From Pseudomonadota bacterium (GTDB taxonomy: Bacteria > Chloroflexota > UBA6077 > JAJPHF01): a stretch of DNA of 64,000 nucleotides. The first letter of the stretch is position 1, and the number at the start of each line of letters is the position of its first letter. Below the pieces are notes generated by a model that was not told where the DNA came from, ran no database searches, and was given only the letters and a program-made list of their open reading frames with translations. Positions 25,524 to 52,401 of the stretch are shown here, piece after piece. The stretch covers positions 1 through 64,000 of the forward strand of contig JAJPHF010000092.1 in assembly GCA_021325365.1 (NCBI GenBank), written 5' to 3'. Both the position numbers and the translations under genes were made by a program.

Positions 25524-25560
25524 GCCGCCTCCGCTATCGCCTAATATAACGATGGAACGT

Positions 25561-25572
25561 CAAAACGTTTTG
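25561..25572. promoter_or_regulatory. Palindrome in front of the toxin-antitoxin genes
   Basis: CAAAACGTTTTG is a perfect 12-bp palindrome ending 8 bp before ATG 25581, with a TATAAC box about 20 bp upstream. It is a likely autoregulatory operator for the antitoxin. Confidence 0.4.
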
Positions 25573-25580
25573 GAGTCAGG

Positions 25581-26064: not shown

Positions 26065-26071
26065 GCCGAGC

Positions 26072-27628: not shown

Positions 27629-27982
27629 CGCCAGCGTCGTCCTCTCTCGCCGCGGGCAGCGCCGGGAGCCGGGCGTGCCCCAGGGCGCTCTCGCTGCCAG
27701 TGTACTTCATGCCGCGCCGCACCCGCGCGACCGCGCGCCGGCCCGGCGCGACGGTGGGCCGCCCGCCAGCCCAGCCCCGGCGCCAAACCGGCGGGGGGCT
27801 AGGTAATCGCGGCAAGAGCCGGGCACGCCGCGCTAGGTACACGTTAGGTAGATCACACGATTGTCGGTGAGTAGCGGCGCGTCGATACTTGAGGCCTAAT
27901 CAGGGCTTGAGGCCGCATCGGAAGTCGCCGTCTGCCGCGCGAGCCGGGCGGCCAGCGGCCGCTCTCGCGCCTGGAGGTGAAC
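27629..27982. other. Divergent intergenic region between fdrA and carbamate kinase
   Basis: No gene is apparent. The A/T-richer part near 27838-27870 (TAGGTACACGTTAGGTAGATC, then CACGATTGTCGG) is the likely site of divergent promoters, but no clear hexamer pair was found. GGAGG at 27973-27977 is the ribosome-binding site of the carbamate kinase gene. Confidence 0.35.
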
Positions 27983-29053: not shown

Positions 29054-29138
29054 CGTATCTCGCCGTTAGCTGGCACACTTGGGGCCACCGCGGATGCGCT
29101 CGCCCAGCGTCACTTGCTGTTGTTCGAGGTTGGCGACC

Positions 29139-32556: not shown

Positions 32557-33543
32557 GTGAGACTGGGGCTCTCCCTGTGGCCCGACCGCGATCCGCGGGC
32601 GCTGGCCGAGCTGGCGGCCGCGGCCGAGGACGCCGGCTTCGACGACCTGTGGCTGCCCGACCACTACAACCTGCGCGACTGCGGGGTGGTGCTCACGCTC
32701 TGCGCCGCGCGCACGCGCCGCATCCGTCTGGGCACGGCGGTCGTGGCAGTCCTGCTGCGGCACCCGGCGATCCTCGCCTCGTTCTTCGCCACGCTGGACG
32801 AGATCTCGGACGGCCGGGCGCTGGCGGGCTTGGGCCCCGGCGGCTTCGAGGTGAAGAGCGAGCTGGCCGTCGGCACGCCCAGCCCCCTCTCGGCCACCCG
32901 CGAGGCGGTGCGGATCGTCCGCGACCTGTGCGCCGGCGAGCGGGTGGCGCTGCCCGGGGCGCGCGCCTTCCCGGTGACGAACGCGGGCCTCGCCTTCCGC
33001 CGCCCCGCGATTCCCATCTGGCTCGCGGGCCGCGGCGTGCGCATGCTGGAGCTGGCCGGCGAGGTGGCGGACGGCGTCATCACGCACGGCCTGGCGCGCG
33101 GCTACCTGGACCTGGTGAACGAGCAGGTGGCCGCGGGCGCGGCGCGCGGCGGCCGGCGCCGCGCGGACTGCCAGGTGGCGCTGATGTTCGAGATGCACTT
33201 GGACGAGGACTTGCAGCGCGCCCGCGACACGCTCCGGCCCGGCTGCCTGATGATGGCGGGCGGCGAGTACGCCGAGGCGCTCATCCCCCGTTACGGCCTC
33301 GATCCGGCGAAGGTGGCCCCCCTGCGGGCGGCCCTGCGCGCGGGCGATTCGGGCGCCGTGCGCCTGCTGGACGACGACATGGTCGACGCGTTCGCGGTCG
33401 GCGGGCCGCCGGGCTTCGTCGTCGAGCGGCTGCAAGCGATCCGCGACGCGGGCGTGGACGCGCTCATCGTCGGACCCGGCAAGCACGCCGACGCGGCGAC
33501 GATCGCGCGGCTCGGCAAGGTGCTGCACGAGGCGTACGGATGA
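32557..33543 (+). CDS. LLM-class (F420-type) flavin-dependent oxidoreductase
   Basis: A 328-residue TIM-barrel oxidoreductase starting at GTG 32557 after GGAGGTAGGGC. Typical segments: MRLGLSLWPDRDP, LAELAAAAEDAGFDDLWLPDHYN, RTRRIRLGTAVVAVLLRHPAILASFFATLDEISDGRALAGLGPGG and IPIWLAGRGVRMLELAGEVADGVITHG. These match F420-dependent methylene-tetrahydromethanopterin-reductase-like LLM proteins more than FMN alkanal monooxygenases. It overlaps the next gene by 4 bp (ATGA), so it is translationally coupled to the opine-type dehydrogenase. Confidence 0.88.
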   Translation: MRLGLSLWPDRDPRALAELAAAAEDAGFDDLWLPDHYNLRDCGVVLTLCAARTRRIRLGTAVVAVLLRHPAILASFFATLDEISDGRALAGLGPGGFEVKSELAVGTPSPLSATREAVRIVRDLCAGERVALPGARAFPVTNAGLAFRRPAIPIWLAGRGVRMLELAGEVADGVITHGLARGYLDLVNEQVAAGAARGGRRRADCQVALMFEMHLDEDLQRARDTLRPGCLMMAGGEYAEALIPRYGLDPAKVAPLRAALRAGDSGAVRLLDDDMVDAFAVGGPPGFVVERLQAIRDAGVDALIVGPGKHADAATIARLGKVLHEAYG

Positions 33544-37975: not shown

Positions 37976-39094
37976 ATGAGAGTCGCAGTGCTGGGCTCCG
38001 GCGGGGGCGCCCTGGCCGTGGCCGCGGACCTCGCGCAGGCGGGCCACCAGGCGGTGCTGGCCGACCTGCCGGCGTTCGCCGCGAACCTGGCGCCGGTGCG
38101 CGAGCAGGGCGGCGTGCGCGTCGGCGCGGGGCTCTACGGCTGGCGGGTGCAGCCCGTGGCCGTGGCGGCGGGCGTGGCCGAGGCGGTGGCGGGCGCCGAG
38201 CTAGTAATCGTCGTGGTGCCCTGCTTTGGGCACGAGCCGTTCGTCGAAGTGCTCACGCCGCTGCTCCAGGAGGGCCAGGCGCTCCTCTTCTTCGGCGAGG
38301 GCAGCGGCTCGATCATCGCGCGGCAGGCCCTCCTGCGGGCGGGCAAGGGCGGCGTCCGCGTCGGCGAGACGAACACGCTGCCGTACCTCGCGCGCCCGGC
38401 CGGGCCGGGCGGCGTGACGGCCGACCGCAAGACCGGCGGCGTCCTGCTGGCCGGGCTGCCCGCCGACCAGACCGCCGGCCTGGTCGCCCTGATCCACGAC
38501 GTGTGGGACTACGTCACCCCGGCCGGGTCGGTGTGGGAGACGGTGCTGGTCAACTACAACGCCATCGACCACGTCGCCACGATCGTTACGAACGTCGGCA
38601 CGCTGGAGAACCGGATGGGCGGCATGCTGCTCTGGGGCGAGGGCGCCACGCCGAGCGTGGTGCGCGCCATCGAGGCGGTGGACGGCGAGCTATTCGCCAT
38701 CCGGCAGGCGCTCGGGCTGCGCGACCGGCGGCGCTACCGCGACTTCCTCATCGCCCAGGGCTTCGCCCCGGACGCCGGCGACCTGTACGCGGTGATGCGC
38801 GCCAGCAAGCTCGTCCAGGGCTACGTGGCGACGGGGCCGCAGGCGCTCCAGACGCGCTTCCTGACCGAGGACGTGCCCTACGCGCTCGTGCTGGCGGCCT
38901 CGCTCGGCGACGCGGTCGGCGTGGACACGCCGGTGATCGACGGCCTGATCGCCCTCACCTCGGTCATGCTCCAGCGCGACTTCCGGGCCGAGGGCCGGAC
39001 GCTGGCGACGCTGGGCCTCGGCGGGCTGGACGCCGCGGGCCTGCGGCGGTTCGCGGAGACGGGCACGACCGCCGCCGCGGGGGTGAGCGCGTGA
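37976..39094 (+). CDS. NAD/NADP octopine/nopaline dehydrogenase family protein, copy 2
   Basis: A 372-residue paralogue of the protein at 33540. The Rossmann motif is VAVLGSGGGALAVAADLAQAG. Shared blocks include ADLPAFAANLAPVR, ETNTLPYLAR, MLLWGEGATPSVVRAIEAVDGE, GLRDRRRYRDFLIAQGFAP and LTEDVPYAL. The active-site segment is LVNYNAIDHVATIVTN. It overlaps the amidohydrolase start by 4 bp (GTGA), so it leads the operon that continues into the grd-like genes. An opine or N-alkyl amino acid is a plausible substrate for the pathway, but this is inference. Confidence 0.9.
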   Translation: MRVAVLGSGGGALAVAADLAQAGHQAVLADLPAFAANLAPVREQGGVRVGAGLYGWRVQPVAVAAGVAEAVAGAELVIVVVPCFGHEPFVEVLTPLLQEGQALLFFGEGSGSIIARQALLRAGKGGVRVGETNTLPYLARPAGPGGVTADRKTGGVLLAGLPADQTAGLVALIHDVWDYVTPAGSVWETVLVNYNAIDHVATIVTNVGTLENRMGGMLLWGEGATPSVVRAIEAVDGELFAIRQALGLRDRRRYRDFLIAQGFAPDAGDLYAVMRASKLVQGYVATGPQALQTRFLTEDVPYALVLAASLGDAVGVDTPVIDGLIALTSVMLQRDFRAEGRTLATLGLGGLDAAGLRRFAETGTTAAAGVSA

Positions 39095-40479
39095 GCCCGA
39101 GTGCGCCCCCGGTCGTCGCGATCCGCAACGTCACCGCCCTCGTCGGCGAGGACTTCACACCGCGGGTAGTGGACCTCGCGCTGGGCGACGGTCGGATCAC
39201 GGGGATCGCGCCGGCGGGGCAGGGCGAGGCCGCGGACGGTGCCGGCGCTGGCGGCGCGGCGCTCGACGGCCGCGGCCTGCTGGCCGTGCCCGGCTTCGCC
39301 GACGTCCATGACCACTTCCGCTTCCTGACGCCCGGCCTGCCGATCGGCGAGGGCCTGAAGCTCGACGAGTACCTGCGGGTGATGTGGCAGACCGGCCAGG
39401 CGATGGGGCCGACTGAGTATCGCCTGGGCGCCCGCCTGACGGCGCTCCAGCGGCTGAAGATGGGCATGACGACCGTCGTGGACCACTGCTACACCTTCCA
39501 CGCGCCCGGTCTCGACGAGGCGTCGCTGGAGGGCTACGCCGAGTGCGGCGTGCGCTGGCTGTACGCCCGCGGCATCATGACGCGGCCCTACGAGCCGGTG
39601 TGCGAGACCTGGGACGCGGCGGCCGCGCGGATGCGCGCGCTGGTCGAGGACGGCCGCGTGCCCGCCGACCGCTTCTTCGTGGCGCCGGTCAGCATCCGCC
39701 AGACCCACCCCGACGAGTACCGCCGCGCGCGCGACCTGGCCGACGCGCTGGGCTGCGGCCTGTACACGCACGTCTCCGAGACGGCGGCCGAGCAGGAGGT
39801 GTGGCAGCGCGAGTGCGGCGCCACGCCGATCCGCGCGCTCGACCAGCTAGGGTTCCTCACGCCGCGGACGGTGCTCGTCCACTGCGTCATCCTCGACGAC
39901 GGCGAGATCGCGCTGCTGCGCGAGCGGGGCTGCCACGTCGTCCACTGCCCGACGAACCACATGAAGCTCGCCAAGGGCTTCACGCGCGTGCCCGATCTCT
40001 TGCGCGCGGGCGTGAACGTGTGCATCGGCCTTGACGGGTCGAGCGACATGCTGGTCGAGATGCGCAGCGAGCTAGGGATGCACGCCGCCCACCGCCTCGA
40101 CCCGACCGCCGTGTCGAAGCTCGACGCGCTGCGCATGGCGACGATCAACGGCGCCCGCGCCCTCGGGCTCGGCGAGACGACGGGCCTCATCGCGCCGGGG
40201 CGCGCGGCCGACCTGGTGCTGATCGACCTGCGCTCGCTGCTGCAGACGCCCGTCGTGGACCCGGTCTACGCGCTCGTCTACGCCACGCACGCCGGCCTGA
40301 TCCGCCACGTGCTGGTCGACGGACGGCTGGTCGTCCGCGACGGGCGTTCGACGCTCGTGGACGAGGACGCGCTGCTCGAAGAAGCCGAGGCCATCGTGGC
40401 GGCCTACCTGCGCCGTATCGGCTTCGAGCCGGGGCCCTGGCTCGCGCCGGCCCCGGCCCACCTCGCGGGGAGCTACTGA
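39091..40479 (+). CDS. Amidohydrolase-superfamily (deaminase/chlorohydrolase-like) metal hydrolase
   Basis: A 462-residue TIM-barrel hydrolase starting at GTG 39091. Metal ligands are recognisable: HxH in FADVHDHFRFL, His in LYTHVSETAAEQEVW, His in VLVHCVILDD and Asp in GLDGSSDMLVEM. The arrangement matches the SsnA/guanine deaminase/atrazine-chlorohydrolase group, which uses one metal ion to hydrolyse C-N or C-Cl bonds. The C-terminal small domain (GLIAPGRAADLVLIDL, VRHVLVDGRLVV-like) is present. The gene is coupled to the opine-type dehydrogenase upstream, and the GrdE-like gene starts 2 bp after its stop. Confidence 0.9.
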   Translation: MSPSAPPVVAIRNVTALVGEDFTPRVVDLALGDGRITGIAPAGQGEAADGAGAGGAALDGRGLLAVPGFADVHDHFRFLTPGLPIGEGLKLDEYLRVMWQTGQAMGPTEYRLGARLTALQRLKMGMTTVVDHCYTFHAPGLDEASLEGYAECGVRWLYARGIMTRPYEPVCETWDAAAARMRALVEDGRVPADRFFVAPVSIRQTHPDEYRRARDLADALGCGLYTHVSETAAEQEVWQRECGATPIRALDQLGFLTPRTVLVHCVILDDGEIALLRERGCHVVHCPTNHMKLAKGFTRVPDLLRAGVNVCIGLDGSSDMLVEMRSELGMHAAHRLDPTAVSKLDALRMATINGARALGLGETTGLIAPGRAADLVLIDLRSLLQTPVVDPVYALVYATHAGLIRHVLVDGRLVVRDGRSTLVDEDALLEEAEAIVAAYLRRIGFEPGPWLAPAPAHLAGSY

Positions 40480-40481
40480 CC

Positions 40482-41759
40482 ATGCTGACACGCACCACCC
40501 ATCCGGTCCGCGAGGTCGCGGCGGGCGCCGCCGGCTACCGCGACGGCCGCCTGTCGCTCGACCTCGACGCGCTGACGGCGCTCGTGACCGACGATCCGCG
40601 CATCGCCGCGGCCCACCTCGCCGTCGTCCAGCCGGGCGAGCGCACGCGCGTGCTGAACGTGCTCGACGTGTTCGACGCGCGCAAGAAAGAGGACGGCCCG
40701 ACCTATCCCGGCTTCGACGGTCCGCCGGTCGCCGCCGGGAGCGGTCGGACCCACGTGCTCGACGGCTTCCAGATCGTCGCCTCGGGCCTGCTGCCCACCG
40801 GCGAGGGCGGGCTGATGGTCGCCCGCCAGGCGTTCATCGACTACTGGGGCGAGGGCGCGCGCTGGAGCCCGTTCGCGGCGACACCGACACTGGCCGTCGA
40901 CGTGCGCCTCGATCCGGCGATCCAGGACAAGGCGGTGGCCGACGACGCCGTGCGCCGCGCGCTGATCCGCCTCTCGACGGCCATCGGCGCGCTGGCCGTG
41001 GACGCAGCCGACGGCGCCGACGAGCAGGTTCCGGCCTCGTGGGAGCGCCCGTCGGCCGCGGCCGGCGGCCCGCCGCGCGTCGCCTACGTCTACCAGATCC
41101 AGTCGCAGGGCGCGCTGCTGGAGACGTTCCTCTACGGCGCCGACATCGCCTTCATGTACCCGACGCTGATCGAGGCCGCGGAATTGCTCGACGGGGCGAT
41201 GGTCTCGGGCAACCACGGCCTGCAGACGAACCCGACGGTCCACCACACCAGCAACCCGGTCCTGCGGCGGCTGCTGGCGGAGGAGCGCGCCGGGCGCCTG
41301 ACTCTCTTGCCCGTCGTGCTGATGGAGGGCCATCACAAGTCCACGCCCGCCAAGCAGCGCTCGGCGGCCCACGCGGTGCAGCTCCTGCGCGCGCTGCGGG
41401 CCGAGGGCGCCGTGTTCACCCAGGAGGGCGGCGGCATGTCGATCGTCGACCAGATGCTGACGATCGAGGGCGCCACCGCGGCCGGCATCCGCTGCGTGGG
41501 CATCACCTACGAGATGGCCGGCGAGCAAGGCGCCGACACGCCGCTGATCTACTACTCGTCGGCCGCGCGCCACCTGGTGTCCACGGGCAACCGCGAGGAG
41601 CGCGTGACGGTGGACGCCGCCGAGCGCGTCGTCGGCCTGGACACCGGGGAATCCACCTTCGGTGCCAATCTGGGCGGGCCGCTGACCGTGCCGCTGTACG
41701 CGCTCTACTGCTCGACCTCGCAGGTGGGCGGGACGCGCGTGCGCGCCGTGGCCGTGTAG
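40482..41759 (+). CDS. grdE: Glycine/sarcosine/betaine reductase component B alpha/beta subunit homologue (GrdE-like), atypical
   Basis: A 425-residue relative of GrdE, the proprotein that is normally cleaved before a cysteine to give a pyruvoyl group that binds the amino substrate. Matching segments: LAVVQPGERTRVLNVLDVF, AAGSGRTHVLDGFQIVASG, RVAYVYQIQSQGALLETFLYG (family VGYVYMLQTQGLLHDTYVYG) and SGNHGLQTNPTVHHTSNP (family SGNC...NPTYVHMNN). Where clostridial GrdE has the processing Cys after SGN, this protein has His245, so self-cleavage to a pyruvoyl group is not expected. The start ATG 40482 is 2 bp after the amidohydrolase stop, and grdB follows 9 bp after its end. Confidence 0.85.
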   Translation: MLTRTTHPVREVAAGAAGYRDGRLSLDLDALTALVTDDPRIAAAHLAVVQPGERTRVLNVLDVFDARKKEDGPTYPGFDGPPVAAGSGRTHVLDGFQIVASGLLPTGEGGLMVARQAFIDYWGEGARWSPFAATPTLAVDVRLDPAIQDKAVADDAVRRALIRLSTAIGALAVDAADGADEQVPASWERPSAAAGGPPRVAYVYQIQSQGALLETFLYGADIAFMYPTLIEAAELLDGAMVSGNHGLQTNPTVHHTSNPVLRRLLAEERAGRLTLLPVVLMEGHHKSTPAKQRSAAHAVQLLRALRAEGAVFTQEGGGMSIVDQMLTIEGATAAGIRCVGITYEMAGEQGADTPLIYYSSAARHLVSTGNREERVTVDAAERVVGLDTGESTFGANLGGPLTVPLYALYCSTSQVGGTRVRAVAV

Positions 41760-41768: not shown

Positions 41769-43067
41769 ATGAAGATCGTTCACTACCTCAATCAGTTCTT
41801 CGCCGGCATCGGTGGCGAGGAGAAGGCCGACGTCGGCCTCGAGGCGCGCGCCGAGGCCATCGGCCCCGCCCGGCTGCTGGCGCAGAAGCTAGGCGGCGCG
41901 TCGGTGGTCACCGTGATCTGCGGCGACAACTACGCCGCCGAGCACCTGGACGCCGTGACCGACGAGCTGGCGCGGCTGGTGGCCGCCGAGCAGCCGGACG
42001 CCGTGGTGCTCGGCCCGGCCTTCAACGCGGGACGCTACGGGCTGGTGTGCGCGGCGCTGGCGGCGGAGCTTCCCGCGCGGACGGGCGTGCCGGCGATCAC
42101 CGGCCTGTACGAGGAGAACGCCGCGCTGGAGCTGTACCGCAGCCGCGCGCTGATCGCGCGCACGGGCAAGTCGGCGGCGAACATGGCGGCGGCGATGGAG
42201 ACGATCGCGCGGCTCGTGCCGCGCCTGGCGGCCGGCGAGTGCATCGAGGACCCGGCCGCCGCGGGGCTGTACGGGTCGGGCGGCCGCCGCAACCAGGTCG
42301 TCGAGCGTCCGGCCGCCGACCGCGCGGTGGACATGCTGCTGGGGCTGCTCGCCGGCGAGGAGGTCGGCACCGAGCTGGCGGTGCCGGAGTTCGAGCCGAT
42401 CGCCCCGCCCGCGCCGGTGCCCAACCTCGGCCGGGCGAAGGTGGCGCTGGTCACCGAGGGCGGTCTGGTGCCGCACGACAACCCGGACGGCCTGACGACG
42501 GGCTGGTCGGAGCGCTGGGCGTCGTACCCGGTGGAGGAGCTGGTCGGCCACCCCGAGCGCTTCCAGGCCATCCACGGCGGTTACGACACGGAGCACGTCA
42601 ACCGCTCGCCGTTCCGGCTGGTGCCGGCCGACGTGGTCCGCGAGATGGTGGCCGAGGGGCGGATCGGCGAGCTGCACGACCGCTACTACGTGACGGCGGG
42701 CATGGCAACGCCGGTGCGCAACGCCCGCGCGATGGGCGCGCAGATCGCGGACGAACTGAAACGCCAGGGGGTGGACGCGGTCATCCTCACCGCTACCTGA
42801 GGCTCCGGCACTCGCTGCGGGTCAGCGATGGCACAGGAGATCGAGCGGGCCGGCATCCCGACCGCGGTGTTCACCGCGCTGGACACGATCGCGCAGAGCG
42901 TCGGCTGCTACCGCATCGTCCGCGGGGCGGGCGTGCTGCACGTGACCGGCAACCCGGCGCTCACGCCGCCCCAGGAGCGCGCCTGGCGGCGGCGGCTCAT
43001 CGAGCGGGCGCTGCAGGCGCTGCAAACGCCGGTGGAGCGTCCCGAGGTGTTCGCGGCGGGCGGCTGA
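41769..43067 (+). CDS. grdB: Glycine/sarcosine/betaine reductase selenoprotein B homologue (GrdB-like), in-frame TGA as selenocysteine
   Basis: A 432-residue selenoprotein if TGA at 42798-42800 is read as selenocysteine (residue 344). The N-terminal part matches GrdB: MKIVHYLNQFFAGIGGEEKAD, NPDGLTTGWSERWASY and GGYDTEHVNRSPFRLVPADVVREM. The frame then reads DAVILTAT-Sec-GSGTRCGSAMAQEIERAGIP and continues to NPALTPPQERAWRRRLIERALQAL, matching the known 'Sec-GTCTRCGATM-KEIE-AGIP' site and C-terminus. The upstream and downstream parts are in the same frame, so no frameshift is needed. Canonical GrdB has Sec-x2-Cys-x2-Cys; here the first Cys is Gly347 and Cys350 is kept. A gene caller would stop at 42800. 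It should act with GrdE and GrdA on an N-substituted glycine-like substrate. Confidence 0.88.
42801..42830 (+). promoter_or_regulatory. Candidate bacterial SECIS hairpin of grdB
   Basis: Immediately 3' of the TGA, 42812-42817 pairs with 42823-42828 (6-bp stem TCGCTG/CAGCGA) around the 5-base loop CGGGT. The GGU of the loop lies 20-22 bases after the UGA, close to the position of GGUC in the E. coli fdhF SECIS loop. This is the form SelB needs, but bacterial SECIS elements vary and a fold calculation was not possible. Confidence 0.5.
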
Positions 43068-43323: not shown

Positions 43324-45108
43324 ATGGCGTTAGCAAGAACGTTGCGGCGCGGCGCGGCGAGTGCGGCGCTCCACCGGCGGGGCGGGCCCGAGGGCGGCGC
43401 GGTGCTGCTGTCGCTGCCGGCCGTGCTGCTGCTGCTCGGCGCGCTCGTGGGGCCGCTGGCGATCCTCCTGGCCTACAGCGTCGGGCTGCTCGGCGACGAC
43501 ACGCCGCTCGGCCTCTCGCGGTACGCCGAGGTGCTGACCGACGGCTTCTACCTCGGCGTGCTCGGCTCGACGCTGCGGCTGGGCGCGCTGGTGACGGCCG
43601 CCACGCTCGCGCTCGGCTACCCGCTGGCGTGGGCGGTGGCGCAGGCGCGCGGCCGGCGCCGCACGCTGCTGCTGGCCATCGTGATCGCGCCGCTGCTCAC
43701 CAATATCCTCGTGCGGACGCTCGGCTGGGTGGTCATCCTCGACGACAACGGCATCCTGAACGCCGCCCTGCGCGCCGTCTCGGGCGGCCATCTCAGCCAG
43801 CGCTTCCTGGGCACCGACGTGGGCATCACGATCGCGCTCACGCACGTCTTCCTGCCGTTCATGGTGCTGCCGATGCTCACCACGCTTGAGCGCATCGCGC
43901 CGTCCCTGCGCGAGAGCGCCGCCGTCTACGGCGCCCATCCGGTCGTCGTCTTCTGGCGCGTGATCCTGCCGCTCAGCGTGCCCGGCATCCTCGCCGGCGC
44001 CACGCTCGTGTTCCTGCTGGCGACGGGCGCGCTACTCACGCCGCTCATCGTCGGCCAGGGCCGCGTCTGGGTGCTGCCCACGCTCATCTACGAGCAGATC
44101 CAGCTTGTCCACTGGGGGCGCGCGGCGGCGCTGGCGGTGACGCTGTTCGGCGCCTCGCTGCTCGCCATCCTGCTCTCCCAGTGGCTCGGCCAGCGCCTGG
44201 CGGGCAGCTACGCGCGCGGCGCGCCCGGGGGCCTGGCGCGGGCCTGGGCGCAGGTTGGCGGCGAGCTAGGGGTGCGCCTCTGCGCCGCGCTGCGGGGCGC
44301 ACCGACCTTCGCGCGCGGGCTGCGGCTGGCGGGGCAGGGCTTCGTCGCGCTCGTCCTGCTCTACCTGCTGTTCCCGCTCGGCGTGGTGATCAAGACCGCG
44401 TTCGACGCGAGCCCCGTGATCCAGGCCGGCTTCGGCGGCTTCACCCTGCGCTGGTTCGAGGCGCTGTTCGCCGACAGCCGCTATCTCGACGCCCTGCTGC
44501 TCTCGCTGCGCCTGGCGCTGCTCACGGCCGTCGTAGACCTGGCGCTCGGCATTCCGGCCGCCCACGCGCTCGTGCGGGGCAGCTTCCCCGGCCGCGGCCC
44601 GCTGCTGGCGTTCCTGCTGTCGCCGCTGCTGATCCCGCACATGGTGCTGGCGATCGGCCTGGTGCTCTACTTCCAGGCGCTCGGGGCCGGGCCGAGCTTC
44701 CTGCGGCTGCTCGTCGTCCACCTGGTCATCGCCCTGCCCTACGTCGTGCGCATCCTGGTGACGGCGTTCCAGAGCGTCGATCCCCGGCTCGAGGAGTCGG
44801 CGCACACGCTCGGCGCCAGCCGGCTCACCGTGCTGCGGCGCGTGACGCTCCCGCTGGTGAAGCCGGCGCTGTTCGCCGCCATGCTCTTCTCGTTCCTGGT
44901 CTCGTTCGACGAGGCGACGATTACCGTACTGGTGGCCGGCGCGGGCAACGTTACGCTGCCGGTGCGCATCTTCAGCCAGCTCACGCAGCAGTGGACGGCG
45001 GCCGTCGCGGCGCTCTCGACCATCTGGATCGCCTGGACGCTGCTGATGCTCGTGATCATCGAGCGGCTGGTGGGGCTAAGCGCCTTCGGCACGGAGCGGC
45101 AGGCATGA
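43324..45108 (+). CDS. Fused ABC transporter permease (PotB-PotC / iron type)
   Basis: A 594-residue membrane protein made of two complete permease modules. Module 1 (about 25-300) has LRESAAVYGAHPVVVFWRVILPLSVPGI as its EAA loop. Module 2 (about 345-590) has LEESAHTLGASRLTVLRRVTLPLVKPAL. Each has about six transmembrane helices. In most bacteria PotB and PotC, or the iron-type permeases, are separate proteins or a two-domain FbpB-like chain. It overlaps the ATPase gene by 4 bp. Together with 45105 and 46471 it forms one importer of the polyamine/iron/opine class placed between grdB and grdA. Confidence 0.92.
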   Translation: MALARTLRRGAASAALHRRGGPEGGAVLLSLPAVLLLLGALVGPLAILLAYSVGLLGDDTPLGLSRYAEVLTDGFYLGVLGSTLRLGALVTAATLALGYPLAWAVAQARGRRRTLLLAIVIAPLLTNILVRTLGWVVILDDNGILNAALRAVSGGHLSQRFLGTDVGITIALTHVFLPFMVLPMLTTLERIAPSLRESAAVYGAHPVVVFWRVILPLSVPGILAGATLVFLLATGALLTPLIVGQGRVWVLPTLIYEQIQLVHWGRAAALAVTLFGASLLAILLSQWLGQRLAGSYARGAPGGLARAWAQVGGELGVRLCAALRGAPTFARGLRLAGQGFVALVLLYLLFPLGVVIKTAFDASPVIQAGFGGFTLRWFEALFADSRYLDALLLSLRLALLTAVVDLALGIPAAHALVRGSFPGRGPLLAFLLSPLLIPHMVLAIGLVLYFQALGAGPSFLRLLVVHLVIALPYVVRILVTAFQSVDPRLEESAHTLGASRLTVLRRVTLPLVKPALFAAMLFSFLVSFDEATITVLVAGAGNVTLPVRIFSQLTQQWTAAVAALSTIWIAWTLLMLVIIERLVGLSAFGTERQA

Positions 45109-46253
45109 GCACGCTCACACTGCGCGGGCTGAGCAAGCGCTTCGCCGGGGCCGGGCCGGCGGCGGTCGACGGCGTCGACCTGACTATCCCGGAGGGGACG
45201 CTCGTCACCCTCCTGGGGCCCTCCGGCTGCGGCAAGACGACGCTCTTGCGGCTCATCACCGGCTTCCTGCAGCCCGACGCGGGCTCCATCCTGATCGGCG
45301 GCGAGGACGTCACCCACCTGCCGCCGCACCGCCGCGACATCGGCATGGTCTACCAGAGCTACGCCCTGTGGCCGCACATGTCGGTCGCCGAGAACGTCGC
45401 GTTCGGCCTGGAGATGCGCGGCGTGGCGCGCGCCGAGCGGGCGCGGCGCGTCGCGGAGGCGCTGGCGCTCGTCGGGCTGGCGGAGTACGGCGACCGCGCG
45501 CCGACGCAGCTCTCGGGCGGGCAGCAGCAGCGAGTGGCGCTCGCCCGCGCGCTCGTCATCCGCCCGCGCGTGCTGCTCCTCGACGAGCCGCTGTCGAGCC
45601 TCGATGCGAACCTGCGCAAGGACCTACGCTTCCACATTCGGGAGCTGCAGCAGCAGCTTCGCGTGACCACCGTGTTCGTGACCCATGATCAGGAAGAGGC
45701 CCTCGCGGTGTCCGACCACGTCGTGCTGATGCGCGGCGGGCGGATCGTGCAGATGGGCTCGGGCGAGGAGCTGTATCGCCGTCCCGGCTCGGCCTTCGCG
45801 ATGACCTTCATGGGCGACGCGAACATCTTGGACGGGATCGTGAGCGCGATCGACACGACGGGCGTGCGGCTCGCCACGCCGCTGGGCGAGCTGCGCTGCG
45901 AGCCGCCCGCGGCGGTGCTGCGCGCCCTCACGATTCAGGAGCGGGTGCGCGTCGGCATCCGGCCCGAGGACGTGGGGCTCGCGCCGCTGGACACGCCGCC
46001 CGCCGACGGCAACGGGGCGGCGCCCGACGCGGCGCTGCGGGTGGTGGGCCGCGTGTGCAGCGCCACCTTCCTCGGCCCCTGGCAGCGATTCGAGGTCGAG
46101 GCGGGCGAGCCGAACACGCGCCTGCACGTGCGGCTGCCCACCGTCACCCCCGACAGCGCGGCGAACGGCCAGCGCCTGCAGCCTGGCGATGCCGTGGGGC
46201 TGCGGATCGCCCCGGGGGCGGTGGCGATCCTGCGGGAGATGCCAGGATCGTGA
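45105..46253 (+). CDS. ABC transporter ATP-binding protein (PotA/FbpC type)
   Basis: A 382-residue ATPase. Walker A LLGPSGCGKTTLLRL, Q-loop VYQSYALWPHMSVAENVAFGL, signature LSGGQQQRVALARALV, Walker B LLLDEPLSSLDANLRKDL and switch VFVTHDQEEALAVSD. A C-terminal TOBE-type regulatory domain follows (RVGIRPEDVGLAPL, then RVVGRVCSATFLGPWQRFEVE). This is the layout of spermidine/putrescine or iron importers. ATG 45105 overlaps the permease stop. It drives the fused permease upstream. Confidence 0.94.
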   Translation: MSTLTLRGLSKRFAGAGPAAVDGVDLTIPEGTLVTLLGPSGCGKTTLLRLITGFLQPDAGSILIGGEDVTHLPPHRRDIGMVYQSYALWPHMSVAENVAFGLEMRGVARAERARRVAEALALVGLAEYGDRAPTQLSGGQQQRVALARALVIRPRVLLLDEPLSSLDANLRKDLRFHIRELQQQLRVTTVFVTHDQEEALAVSDHVVLMRGGRIVQMGSGEELYRRPGSAFAMTFMGDANILDGIVSAIDTTGVRLATPLGELRCEPPAAVLRALTIQERVRVGIRPEDVGLAPLDTPPADGNGAAPDAALRVVGRVCSATFLGPWQRFEVEAGEPNTRLHVRLPTVTPDSAANGQRLQPGDAVGLRIAPGAVAILREMPGS

Positions 46254-46470: not shown

Positions 46471-47595
46471 ATGACCGTCCGAACCTATGGAGCGCGGCGC
46501 ACGCTGCTGGCCGCGCTGGCGCTCCTCCTGACGGCGTGTGGCGGCGCCGCCAGCGCGCCGGCCCAGCCCACGCCGGCGGCTACCGCCGCCGGCCAGACCG
46601 GTGCCGACAGCGGCAACCCCTACACGGCGCTCTGCCCGCCCAGCAGCGCCCCCCGCAGCATGGTGCTGGCCATCTGGGGCGGGCCGCACGAGAGCATCAT
46701 GAAGGAAGGGCTGGCGGGCTTCACGCAGCTCACGGGCATCCAGGTCGAGCTGACGCTCGACAGCGCGCGCGACCGGCTGACGAAGCTGAACGCCGAGAAG
46801 GGCAGCCCGAGCATCGACGTGGCGATGGTCTCGATCGATTCGGTGCCGCGCCTGCTGGCCACCGGCGTCGTGATGCCGGCCGCGACCGACGTGCCGAACG
46901 TCGCGGACATGGCGCCGGTGGCGCGCGTGGACGGCGGCTATGGGATCAGCCTGCTGCAAGAGGGCATTGGCTACAATCCTCAGTACGTCACGACCCCGCC
47001 GACGTCGTGGAGCGACCTGCTGAAGCCCGAGTGGGCCGGGCACCTGGCGTGGCCCAGCATGCCCAACGCCACCTCGCTCGCCGTGCTGACGATGATCGCC
47101 AAGGCGAACGGCGGCTCGGAGGCGAACTTCCAGCCGGGCATCGACGCCGTCGCGCGCATCGCGCCGGGCGTGAAGACGTTTTACGCGCAGGAGCCGCAGA
47201 TCGAGCCGCAGTATCAGAGCGGCGACGTCTGGATCGCGCCGGCCATCGCGGGGTTGGTGCAGTCAATGAAGGAGAAGGGCGGCCCGGTCGCGGTGAGCAT
47301 CCCGAAGGAGGGCGGCCCGATCCTGATGAACGTGGCGACCATCCCGGTCGGGGTGAAGAACCTTGGCTGCTCGAAGGCGCTGGTCGGCTGGCTGCTCTCC
47401 GAGGCCGTCCAGCGCCCCTACGCGGAGCAGTTGTTCTACGGCCCGGCCAACCACGCGGTCACGCTGCCGCCCGACGTGAAGCAGCGCGTGTACCCGCAGG
47501 ACGAGGCGTCGGCCGTGACGATCGATTGGAAGACGATCAGCGAGAAGCAGTCGGACATCCTCGACCAGTGGAACCGTCAGGTAGTCGGCCGCTAA
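46471..47595 (+). CDS. PotD-like ABC solute-binding lipoprotein
   Basis: A 374-residue lipoprotein of extracellular solute-binding family 1. The signal sequence RRTLLAALALLLTAC ends in a lipobox. The mature domain has MVLAIWGGPHESIMKEGLAGFTQLTGIQVEL, LTKLNAEKGSPSIDVAMVSIDSVPRLLATGVV, EGIGYNPQYVTTPPTSWSDLLKPEWAGHLAWP and KNLGCSKALVGWLLSEAVQRPYAEQLFYG, typical of PotD/iron or opine-binding proteins. AAAGGGAAG precedes ATG 46471. The GrdA-like gene begins only 23 bp after its stop, which links transport and the selenoprotein reductase in one transcript. Confidence 0.9.
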   Translation: MTVRTYGARRTLLAALALLLTACGGAASAPAQPTPAATAAGQTGADSGNPYTALCPPSSAPRSMVLAIWGGPHESIMKEGLAGFTQLTGIQVELTLDSARDRLTKLNAEKGSPSIDVAMVSIDSVPRLLATGVVMPAATDVPNVADMAPVARVDGGYGISLLQEGIGYNPQYVTTPPTSWSDLLKPEWAGHLAWPSMPNATSLAVLTMIAKANGGSEANFQPGIDAVARIAPGVKTFYAQEPQIEPQYQSGDVWIAPAIAGLVQSMKEKGGPVAVSIPKEGGPILMNVATIPVGVKNLGCSKALVGWLLSEAVQRPYAEQLFYGPANHAVTLPPDVKQRVYPQDEASAVTIDWKTISEKQSDILDQWNRQVVGR

Positions 47596-47618: not shown

Positions 47619-48092
47619 GTGGCCATCGACCTACGCGGCAAGAAAGTCATCGCCATCGGCGAGCGCGACGGCGTGCAGGGGCAGGCCATCGCCGCGGCGG
47701 TGCAGAGCGCCGGGGCGGAGGTGCTGCTGCAGATCACGCAGTGCTTCGTCTGAACGGCCGCGGGAGCCATGGACCTGGAGGAGCAGGAGCGCATCAAGCA
47801 GACGGTGGAGGCGAACGGCGGCGCGGACGACATCGTGGCGATCCTCGGGTCGCCCGATGCCGAGTCGGCCGGGATGTTCGCGGAGACCGTCAGCCTGGGC
47901 GATCCGACCTACGCCGGGGCCCTGGCGGGAGTTTCGTTGAAACTCCCCGTGTATCACGTGACCGAGCCCGAGATCAAAGCCATCGTCGATCCCGCGGTGT
48001 ACGCGGAGCAGATCGAGATGATGGAGATCGCCCTGGACACCGACGCCATCCGGCAGGCCGTCCAGGAGGTGCGCGCCCGCGCGGCCGACTGA
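47619..48092 (+). CDS. grdA: Glycine/sarcosine/betaine reductase selenoprotein A (GrdA-like), in-frame TGA as selenocysteine
   Basis: A 157-residue selenoprotein when TGA at 47751-47753 is read as selenocysteine (residue 45). From GTG 47619 (AAAGGAGGG upstream) the sequence is DLRGKKVIAIGERDGVQGQA, then LLQITQCFV-Sec-TAAGAMDLEEQERIK and SPDAESAGMFAETVSLGDPTYAGALAGVSLKLPVYHVTEPE. This matches canonical GrdA, with its CxxU redox motif CFV-Sec-TAAGAMDLE, along the whole length. Both halves are in one frame. GrdA carries the Se-carboxymethyl intermediate from component B to component C (GrdC/GrdD). GrdC/D, thioredoxin and Sec-insertion genes are not in this window. No clear SECIS hairpin was recognised by eye. 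Confidence 0.93.
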
Positions 48093-48419: not shown

Positions 48420-49820
48420 CTACGCCGCCGGCCACCGCGCCGCGAAGGCGCGGCCGGCGGCCACGAAGCACTCGGCCGGGGGATGCACGAGCCCGGCCCC
48501 CACCTGGCCGATGCCCGGCTCGCGGTGGGCGATCCCCGTGTTGATCACCGGCAGGATGCCGGTGCGCAGCACGCGGCGCACGTCGATGCCCAGCGGCGTC
48601 CCGCGGAAGTCGAGGATCGGCACGCGGTAGGCGTCGTGCTCCGTCACCGTGATCTCGTACATCGTCTGCGTGTGGCGCAGCGCGTCGGCCGGCGTGCCGC
48701 CCATGAACTGCACGATGGCGGGCGCGGCAGCCATGGCGAACGCCCCGAGGCCGGTCGTCTCGGTGATCGCGCTGTCGCCGATGTCCGGGTTGGCGTCCGC
48801 GGGGCCGTAGCCCGCGAAGTACAGCCCCTCCACGATCTGGCTCGGCCCCGTGAACCAGCGCCCGCCCAGCCCGCTCACGCGGATGCCGAACTCGGTGCCA
48901 TTGCGGGCCATCGTCGTGACCATCGTGCTGCCGGCCACGCCGCTCGCCGCGTCGCCGGCCAGCTTGCCGGCCAGCATCGAGAAGTTCAAGCCGAAGTGAT
49001 CGTTGCCGGCGATGAAGGCAAGCGCGGCGGCGGCCTGGTCGCTGGGCCATCCTGCCGTCGCCAGCCGCGGAGCCAGCCGCCGGAACAGCAGCGACGTGAG
49101 CGCCTTGTTGCGGTTGTGGCACTCGTCGCCCATCTGGATGGCCTCCGCGAACAGCGGACGCAGCTCGATCGGCTCGCCGCCCCGCAGCGCCGCCGCGACC
49201 AGCGGCCCGAACACGTCGCGGAACCACCGCAGCCGATCCAGCACGTCGGGCCCGTTGGCGCCGTAGCGCAGCGCGCGGCCTAGCCCCTCGTTGAACGCGG
49301 AGTACACGGCGCCGTCGCCCGCGGCGTCGGCCACCACGCAGAGCGGCATCGACCAGGTCGTGATGCCGGCCATCGGCCCGATCGCGCCGTGCTCGTGGCA
49401 GGGCGCGAACTCGATCTCGCCGGACGCCGCCAGGCGCTCGGCCGCCTCCGGCGTGTCGGCCAGCCCCTCGTACATCGCCGCGCCGACGACAGCGCCGCGC
49501 ATCGGGCCGCACATGGCCTCCCAGGCGATCGGCGGCCCGGCGTGCAGGAAGGTGCGGCGCGTCATCCCCGGGATCACCTCGTGCGCCGGGCGCACGTCCA
49601 CCAGCAGCGGCCGCGCCCCGAGCAGCCGCGCGGCGGCCTCCTGATTGGCGGCGTCGATCGCCGGGTCGGCCAGCAGGCGCCCCAGCGCGCCGTCGAGCGT
49701 GTCGAGCGGCGGGCGCCAGTCCACGCGCTCGACCGGCACCCCCTGCGCCGCGAGCGTGGCCGCGAACAGGTCCACGCCGACGTTCACGGCGTGCAGCGGC
49801 GTGTGGAGCAGGTCGCTCAT
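48420..49820 (-). CDS. DUF1116 protein (YlbE/AllG-like), copy 2
   Basis: A 466-residue paralogue of the protein at 24060. Shared hallmarks: HAVNVGVDLFAATLAAQGVPVERVDW, ARPLLVDVRPAHEVIPGM, LHAGPPIAWEAMCGPMRGAV, GPMAGITTWSMPL, IQMGDECHNRNKALTSLLFRR, GLGGRWFTGPSQIVEGLYFAGY and AHREPGIGQVGAGLVHPP. ATG 49820 follows CGGAGG and overlaps the FdrA stop by 4 bp, so here DUF2877, FdrA and DUF1116 form one tight operon. It is presumably a subunit of an oxamate carbamoyltransferase-like complex. Confidence 0.91.
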   Translation of the reverse strand: MSDLLHTPLHAVNVGVDLFAATLAAQGVPVERVDWRPPLDTLDGALGRLLADPAIDAANQEAAARLLGARPLLVDVRPAHEVIPGMTRRTFLHAGPPIAWEAMCGPMRGAVVGAAMYEGLADTPEAAERLAASGEIEFAPCHEHGAIGPMAGITTWSMPLCVVADAAGDGAVYSAFNEGLGRALRYGANGPDVLDRLRWFRDVFGPLVAAALRGGEPIELRPLFAEAIQMGDECHNRNKALTSLLFRRLAPRLATAGWPSDQAAAALAFIAGNDHFGLNFSMLAGKLAGDAASGVAGSTMVTTMARNGTEFGIRVSGLGGRWFTGPSQIVEGLYFAGYGPADANPDIGDSAITETTGLGAFAMAAAPAIVQFMGGTPADALRHTQTMYEITVTEHDAYRVPILDFRGTPLGIDVRRVLRTGILPVINTGIAHREPGIGQVGAGLVHPPAECFVAAGRAFAARWPAA

Positions 49821-51334
49821 CGCGGCACCTCCGGGGCGGGAAGGCCCCGCGCCAGCGCGGCGGCCACGACGGCAGCGTGGGCGTTGCGGCTGTGGACCTG
49901 GGCGCCTGCGGCTTCCAGCCGCCGGCGCTGGGCCGCGAGCCCCTGCGGGTCGCGCGCCGTCCCACACAGCGACACCACCACGGCCAGCGCCCGGCCGGCG
50001 TCGCGGGCCGTCGCCCGCGCGCGCTCGATGGCCGGGGCTAGCTCGCCGGCGGGGTCCAGGTGCGCCCCGTAGCCCAGCACCACGTCCAGCAGCACCACCT
50101 CGACCGTCGGGTCCCGCGCCGCCGCCGCGAGCGCGTCGCCGCGCAGCCCGTTGTCGATCATCGGGTGGGGGCGCCCCCGCGTGTACTCGTCGCTGCCGTA
50201 GTCCACGACCTGGTGCCGCGCCGTGCCGGGTAGCGAGCCATCGAGGTTCGAGTCGACCGCTCCCAGGCGCTCGCGCAAGAGCAGGAGCGCTTCCTGGGCG
50301 AGCGTGCCGCCGGCGAACAGGCCGCGCAGACCGCCGCCCGCGTCAGCCGCGGCGGGCGCCCCCGGCGCGGCCTCGGCCGTGGGCGCCGGCCGCCCCGCGG
50401 CTAGGGCCGTCGCGGCGTCGGCCGCCTCCGCCAGCGTGCGCGCCCACGTGACCCCGGCGGGCAGCTCGACGGGCGCCGCGCCCAGGAGGCAGGCGACGAC
50501 TGGCTTGCCGCCGGCCGCCGCCGCGGCGAGTACGGCACGCGCCACCGTGGGCGACGGCGGCTTCGAGACGAGCACGACGACCCGCGTCGCCGGGTCGGCC
50601 GCCAGCAGCGCGAGCGCCCGCCGCGTGGTGCGGCCCCCGACCGCCTCCGCGAGGTCGCGCCCGCCCGTGCCGATCGCCTGCGAGACACCGACGCCCGCCT
50701 CGTCGAGGAGGCAGCTCACCTGCTGGATCCCCGTCCCCGACGCGCCGACGATGCCCACCGGGCCGGGCCGCACCGCGTTGGCGAAGCCCAGCCCCACCCC
50801 CGCGAGGATGCTGGTGCCGCAGTCCGGCCCCATTAGCAGCAGGTCGCGCTCGTCGGCCAGGGTCTTCAGGCGCACCTCGTCGGCGAGCGGGACGTTGTCG
50901 CTGAACAGGAAGACGTGCAGGCCCGCCCGCAGCGCCTCCTCGGCCTCCAGCGCGGCGTAGACGCCGGGCACCGAGACGACGGCGAGATTGGCGGACGGGG
51001 CGCGCGTCACGGCGGCGCGCAGGCTGCGCGCCGCCACTTCCCCGAAGCGGGGCGCCGCGCCCTGGCCGCGCAGCAGCGCCAGCCCGGCGTCCAGCGCCGC
51101 GTCGGCCGCGGCCCCGTCGTCGGCGCGCACGCACAGGAGCAGGTCGCTCGGCCCCGCCGCCTCGGTCGCCGCGCTGAGGAGCCCGCTCGCGCGCAGGCTC
51201 TCCTTGTTCGCGGCCGTGCCCATGAGCGCGTCGGCGGCCTGGACGCCGGGCATCCCGCGCAGCGCCTGCGCGACCTGCATCAGGCGCACCGAGTCGGCGT
51301 AGGTGTCCTTCTCGATGCGCGCCCGCACTACCAT
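49817..51334 (-). CDS. fdrA: FdrA/AllF-like protein, copy 2
   Basis: A 505-residue FdrA family member. Hallmarks: MVVRARIEKDTYADSVRLMQ, GTAANKESLRASGLL, LHVFLFSDNVPLADEVRLKTLA, LLMGPDCGTSILAGVGLGFANAVRPGP, IVGASGTGIQQVSCLLDE, GVSQAIGTGGRDL, PHPMIDNGLRGDAL and VVVSLCGTARDPQGL. ATG 51334 follows GGAGGAG and overlaps the DUF2877 gene by 7 bp. It is related to but clearly diverged from copy 1 at 26072. The complete trio suggests that this copy, rather than copy 1, keeps the canonical three-subunit arrangement. Confidence 0.91.
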   Translation of the reverse strand: MVVRARIEKDTYADSVRLMQVAQALRGMPGVQAADALMGTAANKESLRASGLLSAATEAAGPSDLLLCVRADDGAAADAALDAGLALLRGQGAAPRFGEVAARSLRAAVTRAPSANLAVVSVPGVYAALEAEEALRAGLHVFLFSDNVPLADEVRLKTLADERDLLLMGPDCGTSILAGVGLGFANAVRPGPVGIVGASGTGIQQVSCLLDEAGVGVSQAIGTGGRDLAEAVGGRTTRRALALLAADPATRVVVLVSKPPSPTVARAVLAAAAAGGKPVVACLLGAAPVELPAGVTWARTLAEAADAATALAAGRPAPTAEAAPGAPAAADAGGGLRGLFAGGTLAQEALLLLRERLGAVDSNLDGSLPGTARHQVVDYGSDEYTRGRPHPMIDNGLRGDALAAAARDPTVEVVLLDVVLGYGAHLDPAGELAPAIERARATARDAGRALAVVVSLCGTARDPQGLAAQRRRLEAAGAQVHSRNAHAAVVAAALARGLPAPEVPR

Positions 51335-52401
51335 GCGCCCTCCTCCGTGGTGGGTGGCGTGGCGGCGCGCGCTTGCAGGTGCAGGCGCGCGCCGAGCAGG
51401 ATGCCGAGGGCCACGTCGGCGCCCGACGTATGGCCGAGCGCCAGCGTGCGCGCCAGCGCTCCCGCGAGGCGGCTGGCATCGGGGGCCACGAGCGCCTGCA
51501 ATAGTGTACCGGCACTCTCGCCGACCGCGCCCGTCGCCGCGCAGGCCAGGAGCGCCTCGCTCACCGGCGTCGTCTGCCCCCGTGCGGCGCGCCGGATGAG
51601 GAGCCCCGCGGCCCGCCAGCGGCGGCGCTCCGGCTCGAATTCCCGCCCCAGGAAATAACCCGCGGCGAGCATCCCGCCCAGCACGTCGTCGGCGGACGGG
51701 GTCAGCCCCGGTCCCAGCCCGACGAGCGCCCGCGCCGCCGCCTCCACTCCCCCGAGGTCGTCCTGCCGCAGCGCGCGCATCAGGAGGGCGAGGTGCCTGC
51801 GGGCACGCTCCCGCCAATCCAAAGTCGCCGGCTCGCCACACCGGTTCTCGCAGACGCTGAGCCCGGCGATGAGGTAGGGCGGGGGCTCGTCCCCCGCCGC
51901 CCGGCCGGTGCCGCTCAGGTCGATAGTTCCGGCAACCGCCCTCGGCGCATCCGTCGGGGTGCCACAGACGAGGGCCGCCAGGCTCTCCGGCGGCGCCTGC
52001 TCCGCCAGGAGATGCGACAAGGCGTCGAGCCGCGCCCGCAAGATGGTAGCGCACCAGACGAGGCTGCCAGCCGACGGCCGCGGGTCCCACAGCGCCCCGG
52101 CGCGAGCGACCAGCGCGACGGCCGCCGTCTCGACGGTCAGCTGCCCGCCGCCGACGGTCACCTGGCTCCGCGGCTCCAGGCCGAGCAGCGGCCTGTCCGG
52201 CCGCGATGCGAAGGGCAAGCGCAGCCCGAAGGGAAGCCGCTCGGCGTCTGCGGTCGTCAGGGCCACTATCCGGTCGCCGACGCGCAGGTAGGCGGCGCGC
52301 GCGTAGACGCCAAGCACCCGGGCGGGCCGGCGCGGCCCGTGGACGAGGCTCGCCACCGGCCGCGCGACCTCGACCAGCGTCCGGGCAGGCGGCTCGATCA
52401 T
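51328..52401 (-). CDS. DUF2877 protein (YlbF/AllH-like)
   Basis: A 357-residue DUF2877 member. The diagnostic segment is VGLGPGLTPSADDVLGGMLAAGYF near residues 225-250, a Gly-rich loop found in the third subunit of oxamate carbamoyltransferase. The N-terminal region (LVHGPRRPARVLGVYARAAYLRVGDRIVALTT) is also typical. It is the first gene of the operon DUF2877-FdrA-DUF1116, with a 7-bp overlap to FdrA. ATG 52401 has only a weak GGGGAC ribosome-binding site. Together the three should convert a ureido acid such as oxalurate to carbamoyl phosphate. Confidence 0.85.
   Translation of the reverse strand: MIEPPARTLVEVARPVASLVHGPRRPARVLGVYARAAYLRVGDRIVALTTADAERLPFGLRLPFASRPDRPLLGLEPRSQVTVGGGQLTVETAAVALVARAGALWDPRPSAGSLVWCATILRARLDALSHLLAEQAPPESLAALVCGTPTDAPRAVAGTIDLSGTGRAAGDEPPPYLIAGLSVCENRCGEPATLDWRERARRHLALLMRALRQDDLGGVEAAARALVGLGPGLTPSADDVLGGMLAAGYFLGREFEPERRRWRAAGLLIRRAARGQTTPVSEALLACAATGAVGESAGTLLQALVAPDASRLAGALARTLALGHTSGADVALGILLGARLHLQARAATPPTTEEGAW

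What the first reader, a model, noticed from the sequence alone, without database searches (positions are those of the whole stretch)
42798..42800. In-frame TGA in grdB is a selenocysteine codon, followed by a SECIS-like hairpin
The N-terminal 343 codons and the following 88 codons are in one frame and together match GrdB. The TGA falls exactly where GrdB has Sec (TAT-Sec-GSGTRCG). A 6-bp stem with a 5-base loop containing GGU lies 12-28 bases downstream, close to the loop position in E. coli fdhF. A standard gene caller would report two fragments.
Basis: partly seen in the sequence, partly recalled or inferred. Interest (0 to 1): 0.93.

Follow-up and report, generated by a model that had tools for sequence, protein, structure and literature searches.

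The report
Selenocysteine TGA in Chloroflexota reductase gene
A TGA triplet inside a gene of a bacterium that is probably a member of the Chloroflexota sits exactly where the related genes examined also have TGA, so what gene callers report as two fragments is predicted to be one selenium-containing reductase; the partner subunit encoded next to it lacks the cysteine that classic glycine reductases turn into a cofactor, which suggests a different, still unknown substrate.

Summary
TGA 42798-42800 joins 343 and 88 codons in one frame; the halves match contiguous parts of the GrdB-family profile with TGA at the selenocysteine (Sec) position. The 18 nearest homologues all stop there, 98 of 98 alignments from 95 public loci have TGA there, and the downstream frame is conserved in 32 other proteins. 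The 6-bp hairpin exists, is more stable than most synonymous recodings (p 0.016) and lies in register with Rfam SECIS_4, but below its threshold. A second in-frame TGA lies at the CxxU site of grdA, 4.6 kb beyond grdB. The window's own genome is not held, so its Sec genes are untested; most relatives have them. Sec here is textbook. Less ordinary: it is not a recognisable glycine or sarcosine reductase. The partner lacks the pyruvoyl cysteine, published GrdB/GrdF motifs fail, and grdD was found in 0 of 26 non-clostridial loci (15 hold grdC) against 47 of 50 clostridial-type loci with grdC. Verdict: real selenoprotein gene of a pyruvoyl-less, apparently GrdD-less variant with unknown substrate.

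The parts
40482..41759 (+). alpha subunit of component B (PF09338, GrdE/GrdG/GrdI/FarE-like); lacks both cysteines of the pyruvoyl motif
   Evidence: PF09338 E 5e-77; only two cysteines, residues 338 and 410; SGNH...LQT where clostridial partners read SGNCVSACDKN; NF040793 141.5 of 780 bits, FarE 62.2 of 675
41769..43067 (+). grdB-family selenoprotein gene, 432 residues when TGA is read through (without the final stop)
   Evidence: TIGR01918 389 bits, cut-off 65; PF07355 E 3e-114
42798..42800 (+). in-frame TGA, predicted selenocysteine codon (residue 344)
   Evidence: profile position 346 between contiguous halves; TGA in 98 of 98 covering alignments; 18 of 18 nearest homologues end here
42812..42828 (+). 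SECIS-like hairpin, 6-bp stem, loop CGGGU
   Evidence: in register with Rfam SECIS_4 at 42801-42838 but under its gathering score
43324..45108 (+). ABC transporter permease (two BPD_transp_1 stretches)
45105..46253 (+). ABC transporter ATPase with TOBE domain (start codon not examined)
46471..47595 (+). extracellular solute-binding protein
47619..48092 (+). grdA, selenoprotein A, 157 residues when TGA is read through
   Evidence: PF04723 E 2.4e-59; NF040748 206.5 bits, cut-off 130
47751..47753 (+). in-frame TGA in grdA, predicted selenocysteine codon (CFV-Sec)
   Evidence: no SECIS-like hairpin found by my search

Best explanation
The TGA at 42798-42800 lies in frame inside one grdB-family gene at the family's selenocysteine position and is predicted to be read as selenocysteine, so that the two fragments a gene caller sees would be one selenoprotein, likely the catalytic subunit of a reductase that works with the selenoprotein GrdA encoded 4.6 kb beyond it. 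Shown: frame, position, conservation on both sides, TGA or a stop at that place in the relatives examined, the hairpin, and a second in-frame TGA at the CxxU site of grdA. Inferred: a SelB-type factor bound to the hairpin 12-28 bases after UGA would deliver the selenocysteine tRNA. The selenolate would attack the CH2-X carbon of an imported X-CH2-COO- compound and release X; the carboxymethyl group would pass to the selenocysteine of GrdA and then to GrdC, as in the known glycine, sarcosine and betaine reductases. Because the partner has no cysteine at the pyruvoyl site and neither the published glycine nor the sarcosine motif fits, the substrate is probably not glycine but a substituted or quaternary glycine, or another acetate with a leaving group.
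For: Two halves contiguous on the profile; 18 of 18 nearest homologues end at the site; 98 of 98 TGA in 95 loci; 15 of 15 places in 9 of 400 Chloroflexota genomes hold one internal TGA; 32 other proteins conserve the C-terminal frame; grdA with its own in-frame TGA; hairpin p 0.016, SECIS_4 register; Sec genes in most relatives, all three (selA, selB, tRNA-Sec) in G086, an apparent relative of the window's organism; TGA is an ordinary stop elsewhere in the window, e.g. 8682-8684. Partner without pyruvoyl cysteine; motifs not met.
Against: No genome for the window, so its own selA, selB, selC and selD are untested. SECIS_4 is under its gathering score; overall folding is unremarkable; only 47 of the 76 relatives' GU-loop hairpins have the loop at about the window's position, and 22 of 98 have none. 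The grdA TGA has no such hairpin. One of the 120 listed homologues has Cys at the site. selD was not searched anywhere. No grdC or grdD in the window. Substrate and chemistry are inference.
Confidence: 0.9

Rival explanations
1. The TGA is a true stop and the gene is a pseudogene, or the TGA is a sequencing error.
For: A TGA splits the gene; only the 343-codon part carries the Pfam domain.
Against: The same break is in all 18 nearest homologues and TGA stands there in 98 of 98 alignments; the part after it stays conserved, 32 other proteins at 44-95% identity.
Confidence: 0.02
2. TGA is a sense codon for Trp or Cys throughout this genome.
For: 34 of 120 listed homologues carry W at this place, apparently called with TGA as Trp.
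Against: Genes of the window end in TGA at family-typical lengths, such as 7344-8684, grdB itself at 43065-43067 and grdA at 48090-48092. The place is the family's Sec site, and selB is present in 20 of 22 related genomes.
Confidence: 0.02
3. Two separate proteins are made: the 343-residue part, and a 79-residue part from the internal ATG 42828.
For: Gene callers report both pieces; the start ATG is present in the window.
Against: The conserved GSGTRCG stretch just after TGA lies before that ATG and would be in neither protein; both pieces align as one chain in the family.
Confidence: 0.04
4. It is an ordinary glycine or sarcosine reductase of the known kind (shares the Sec reading with the best explanation and differs on the substrate).
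For: Highest curated score is to sarcosine GrdF, 412 bits; grdA nearby; Chloroflexi (Dehalococcoidia) glycine reductases are in print (PMC9751293, passages).
Against: Under the glycine, sarcosine and betaine cut-offs; no cysteine at the pyruvoyl site; the GrdB motif fits 54 of 60 rows with a two-cysteine partner but 0 of 19 rows of the window's clade, the GrdF motif 0 of 19. Part of the mismatch is spacing: one gap is one residue short in the window.
Confidence: 0.25

Closest known systems
Glycine reductase component B, GrdB with GrdE (clostridial type)
   Same: Family, Sec position, partner gene directly upstream, GrdA with CxxU
   Different: UxxGxxC instead of UxxCxxC; partner lacks the pyruvoyl cysteine; GrdB motif and TIGR01917 cut-off not met
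Sarcosine reductase component B, GrdF with GrdG
   Same: Highest curated score, 412 bits; IHGGYD stretch shared with the GrdF motif
   Different: Cut-off is 800; IHGGYDT for IHGGYDR and TAGMAT for TTGTGT; partner lacks the two cysteines that the annotated GrdG beside GrdF has
Betaine reductase component B, GrdH with GrdI
   Same: Partner without the two cysteines, as in the Enterococcus gilvus pair and as PMC10838667 says of GrdI (passages)
   Different: NF040795 338 of 775 bits; distant on the tree, where the E. gilvus branch is long
Fluoroacetate reductase FarB with FarE
   Same: FarE lacks both cysteines and FarB lacks CxxC (PMC10838667, passages); the window's pair shows like losses
   Different: FarE model 62 of 675 bits; no FarB sequence was compared; neighbours differ
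Rfam SECIS_4 (RF01990)
   Same: Same register directly after UGA, full model length; over threshold at grdB or grdF in 5 of 5 clostridial loci tested and in Chloroflexi L004
   Different: 19 bits in the window, gathering score 38; also not over threshold in Chloroflexi L034 and L021

Membership tests
GrdB-family selenoprotein B (PF07355 / TIGR01918) | Profile score over the curated cut-off | tested here: met
   389.1 of 65.45 bits; 382.4 of 22
GrdB-family selenoprotein B (PF07355 / TIGR01918) | Sec codon at the family position | tested here: met
GrdB-family selenoprotein B (PF07355 / TIGR01918) | UxxCxxC after Sec (motif as given in PMC13188914) | tested here: not met
   U-GSGTRC, i.e. UxxGxxC; 27 to 28 of 98 relatives' alignments also lack the first Cys: 7 + 18 + 2 + 1 = 28
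Selenoprotein gene (bacterial Sec decoding) | selA, selB, selC, selD in the same genome | not testable with these tools
   no genome held; relatives; selD not searched
Selenoprotein gene (bacterial Sec decoding) | SECIS hairpin just after UGA | tested here: inconclusive
   hairpin present, p 0.016; SECIS_4 below gathering score
Glycine reductase GrdB (TIGR01917) | Curated score and published GrdB motif | tested here: not met
   368.1 of 602.2 bits; motif not matched
Sarcosine reductase GrdF (NF040794) | Curated score and published GrdF motif | tested here: not met
   412.1 of 800 bits; motif not matched
Betaine reductase GrdH (NF040795) | Curated score | tested here: not met
   337.6 of 775 bits
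Fluoroacetate reductase (FarE, NF053623) | Curated score of the alpha subunit | tested here: not met
   62.2 of 675 bits
Glycine/sarcosine reductase complex | Partner proprotein with the pyruvoyl-forming cysteine | tested here: not met
Glycine/sarcosine reductase complex | Selenoprotein A with CxxU | tested here: met
Glycine/sarcosine reductase complex | Component C (GrdC and GrdD) | tested here: inconclusive
   neither found in the 64-kb window; relatives: GrdC over cut-off in 17 of 22 genomes, GrdD in 2 of 22, both clostridial
Any of the above | Enzymatic activity and substrate | not testable with these tools
   needs protein

The most novel reading that the evidence does not exclude
Outside Clostridia, Synergistota and Spirochaetota, component-B selenoenzymes form a separate, diversified set of selenium-dependent carboxymethyl reductases that work without the pyruvoyl cofactor, act on non-glycine substrates brought in by dedicated transporters, and feed GrdA and a GrdC that acts without GrdD, so that the acetyl group leaves by a route other than GrdD-made acetyl phosphate. 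One Chloroflexota genome (G001) carries nine such B genes.
Probability: 0.4. Interest if true: 0.65.

Novelty: new variant of a known kind. Interest (0 to 1): 0.42.

Why it matters
The Sec codon adds a member to a known selenoprotein family and shows again how such genes are split or mistranslated: 34 of 120 listed homologues carry W at the Sec site. The wider gain is a testable claim: a group of these enzymes outside the classic phyla lacks two parts treated as standard for glycine reductase, the pyruvoyl-forming cysteine and GrdD, while keeping the selenocysteine codons of GrdB and GrdA. If right, selenium-dependent cleavage of substituted acetates takes place in several other phyla on substrates that nobody has assigned.

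Tried and rejected
Pseudogene, sequencing error, altered code and two-protein readings were considered and rejected on conservation. A route from creatinine or hydantoins to sarcosine was considered because of the amidohydrolase at 39091-40479, the AllG/FdrA/AllH-like genes and a carbamate kinase with an isochorismatase-family protein at 27977-29933; nothing tested it and the GrdF motif fails, so it is not claimed. My first idea on seeing no NF040747 (GrdD) hits, that component C is wholly absent, was wrong: GrdC is over cut-off in 17 of 22 genomes. A hairpin after the grdA TGA was looked for and not found. No solved structure matched by sequence. The plasmid collection gave only relatives under 60%. 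In one search, 9 of 120 rows missed my pattern; 7 of them end at the same place and 2 (P0043, P0088) are full-length rows that I did not examine further.

Full report
WHAT IS THERE. The TGA at 42798-42800 is in frame with the ATG at 41769 and with the 88 codons up to the TGA stop at 43065-43067. Read through, the 432-residue product scores 389 bits against TIGR01918 (cut-off 65) and 382 against PF07355. Scanned apart, the first 343 residues match TIGR01918 positions 1-345 and the last 88 match 347-430, so the TGA takes the one missing position. In 71% GC DNA an open frame means little, so I rest nothing on openness.

CONSERVATION. A protein search returned 5490 homologues from a capped candidate list, 120 of them listed. 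The nearest 18 (58-93% identical) all end at this position. Over the 120: 76 end there by my pattern, 34 carry W there (apparently TGA called as Trp), 1 carries C, and 9 missed the pattern, 7 of which end at the same place. A search with the last 79 codons found 33 proteins, one the window's own; the other 32 are 44-95% identical. In the 95 grdB loci fetched by then from public genomes, 98 alignments cover the site and all 98 have TGA; a few are overlapping copies of one place, and the loci are the best of a capped list, so this is not a census. In a sample of 400 Chloroflexota genomes 9 have a match at E <= 1e-60, 15 places, each with one TGA inside; that search scored at most four candidates a genome. 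Scored in full, one of these genomes, G001, has nine copies, one of which also holds a TAG.

A SECOND SEC GENE. Codons from GTG 47619 read CFV-TGA-T at 47751-47753 and go on to a stop at 48090-48092. Read through, this is selenoprotein A: PF04723 E 2.4e-59, NF040748 206.5 bits against 130. In 22 related genomes grdA is over cut-off in 18, each with one TGA; it was not found in G001, G010, G013 and G341.

HAIRPIN. The 6-bp stem with loop CGGGU is at 42812-42828. The folding energy of the 48-base region is unremarkable (z -0.79; p 0.22 against synonymous recoding). A perfect hairpin with GU in the loop and at least this stable came in 1.55% of 2000 synonymous recodings; I wrote that definition after seeing the hairpin. 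Of the 98 relatives' sequences 76 have a hairpin of that kind (47 of them with the loop at about the window's place), mean -4.49 kcal/mol against -1.16 in recodings, 48 of 98 at p <= 0.05 from 60 recodings each. The sequences are related, so these are not independent tests. Rfam SECIS_4 aligns over its full length at 42801-42838 and is the best family there, but at 19 bits against a gathering score of 38. Of 8 loci tested, SECIS_4 is over threshold in the five clostridial ones (58.7-64.2 bits) and in Chloroflexi L004 (44.9), not in Chloroflexi L034 and L021. I found no such hairpin after the grdA TGA. This supports a SECIS element; it does not prove one.

DECODING GENES. No genome is held for the window. 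It is probably Chloroflexota: the 93% relative of the alpha subunit is named so, and the aconitase-family protein of 7344-8684 is 84% identical to one in G086, a genome in the same order as G001, the genome of the Chloroflexi loci L004 and L034. In 22 related genomes selB is over cut-off in 12 of 13 plus 8 of 9 (controls 2 of 14), selA in 18 (controls 1 of 14), tRNA-Sec in 20 (controls 5 of 14, so this is the weakest test). selD was not searched. G086 has selA, selB, tRNA-Sec, grdC and grdA, with AllG- and FdrA-like genes after grdA on the other strand as in the window, but no grdB match in its assembly. TGA is a plain stop elsewhere in the window, for example at 8682-8684.

WHICH REDUCTASE. 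The curated models for glycine (368 of 602 bits), sarcosine (412 of 800) and betaine (338 of 775) component B are all missed; the alpha subunit scores 141.5 of 780 for GrdG and 62 of 675 for FarE. In clostridial alpha subunits a segment reads SGNCVSACDKN; in the window it reads SGNHGLQTN, and the protein's two cysteines lie elsewhere. That a cysteine of GrdE becomes an N-terminal pyruvoyl group I take from PMC9908766 (passages read); that both conserved cysteines serve the processing, and that FarE and GrdI lack them and FarB lacks CxxC, from PMC10838667 (passages read). I paired 90 of 100 distinct grdB rows with a same-strand alpha gene within 3.5 kb. With the window, 60 of 91 partners have both cysteines, 25 neither, 5 only the second, 1 only the first. 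Those without both come from Chloroflexota, Actinomycetota, Tectimicrobiota, Myxococcota, Thermodesulfobacteriota, Pseudomonadota and Planctomycetota (names as in the records), plus the betaine-type pair of Enterococcus gilvus. The published GrdB motif (PMC9751293, passages read) fits 54 of 60 rows with a two-cysteine partner, 0 of 30 without, 0 of 19 in the window's clade and 3 of 10 with no partner found; the GrdF motif fits 1 of the 60, the annotated GrdF itself, and none of the rest. In the window the decisive differences are IHGGYDT and TAGMAT; one gap is also a residue short. The residue three after Sec is Cys in 57 of 57 alignments with a two-cysteine partner, 7 of 27 without, 6 of 14 unpaired. 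On a FastTree tree of 119 rows the window's clade lies in a largely Chloroflexota part, beside L021 (Anaerolineales) and L076 (Acidimicrobiia), local support 97.

DOWNSTREAM PARTS. GrdC is over cut-off in 17 of 22 genomes, GrdD in 2, both clostridial. Locus by locus, grdD was found in 47 of 50 Bacillota/Synergistota/Spirochaetota loci that hold grdC (61 loci in all) and in 0 of 26 others, the window included, 15 of which hold grdC. The query was one GrdD, from E. gilvus, so a very diverged one could be missed; several of the 26 share a genome, and contig ends cut some loci. The order alpha-grdB-grdC-grdA occurs in L011, L014, L021, L045, L055, L061, L076, L139 and L141 (L055 has other genes between; L014 keeps both partner cysteines). 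Of the neighbours scanned, transport genes turned up in L131, L135, L136 and L140 (family-5 binding proteins), L138 (ABC ATPase), L055 (TRAP) and L021 (Bmp-type ABC), and none among those scanned in L132, L133, L134 and L139. In L021 an MttB, a corrinoid protein and an MtmB follow, which suggests methylated amines for that relative only.

MECHANISM. Shown: the anatomy above. From the literature (PMC9908766 and PMC13188914, passages read): component B binds the substrate and releases the amine, GrdA carries the intermediate, component C makes acetyl phosphate. Inferred: the window's enzyme does the first steps on a substrate imported by the ABC system that lies between grdB and grdA. With no cysteine at the pyruvoyl site, that group should be missing, which favours a substituted or quaternary glycine or another CH2-X acetate. 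The fate of the acetyl group without GrdD is open.

NOVELTY. Sec in grdB is long known (PMC1794560, passages read), and Chloroflexi grd genes are in print (PMC9751293). In seven literature searches I saw no paper describing the joint absence of the pyruvoyl cysteine and GrdD across these phyla. I read passages of six papers (those named here and PMC8547467), no whole text and no supplements. As a selenoprotein the finding is ordinary; as a reductase it looks like a new variant.

Noticed in passing
47619-48092: A second selenoprotein gene, grdA, with in-frame TGA at 47751-47753; not mentioned in the finding given.
   Followed up: yes
G001 (loci L083, L092, L095, L097, L100-L104): Nine grdB-family copies in one Chloroflexota genome, one of them with a TAG besides the TGA.
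   Followed up: partly
L021:13818-18613: MttB, corrinoid protein and MtmB genes beside grdB, grdC and grdA in an Anaerolineales genome; Rfam PYLIS_3 (pyrrolysine insertion) matches at 15045-15144.
   Followed up: no
24060-29933 and 48420-52401: Two AllG/FdrA-type sets in one window, one beside a carbamate kinase and an isochorismatase-family gene, the other with an AllH-like gene right after grdA.
   Followed up: no
13589-22825: A D5_N/Prim-Pol primase gene with lower GC3 (0.81) between tRNA-Gly and tRNA-Cys genes looks like an integrated element.
   Followed up: no
3-3193 and 32557-33543: Luciferase-like monooxygenase and Rieske genes suggest an organism that uses oxygen, unusual company for glycine-reductase-type genes.
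   Followed up: no
database proteins P0020-P0121: 34 of 120 listed homologues have W at the Sec site, apparently gene-called with TGA as Trp.
   Followed up: partly
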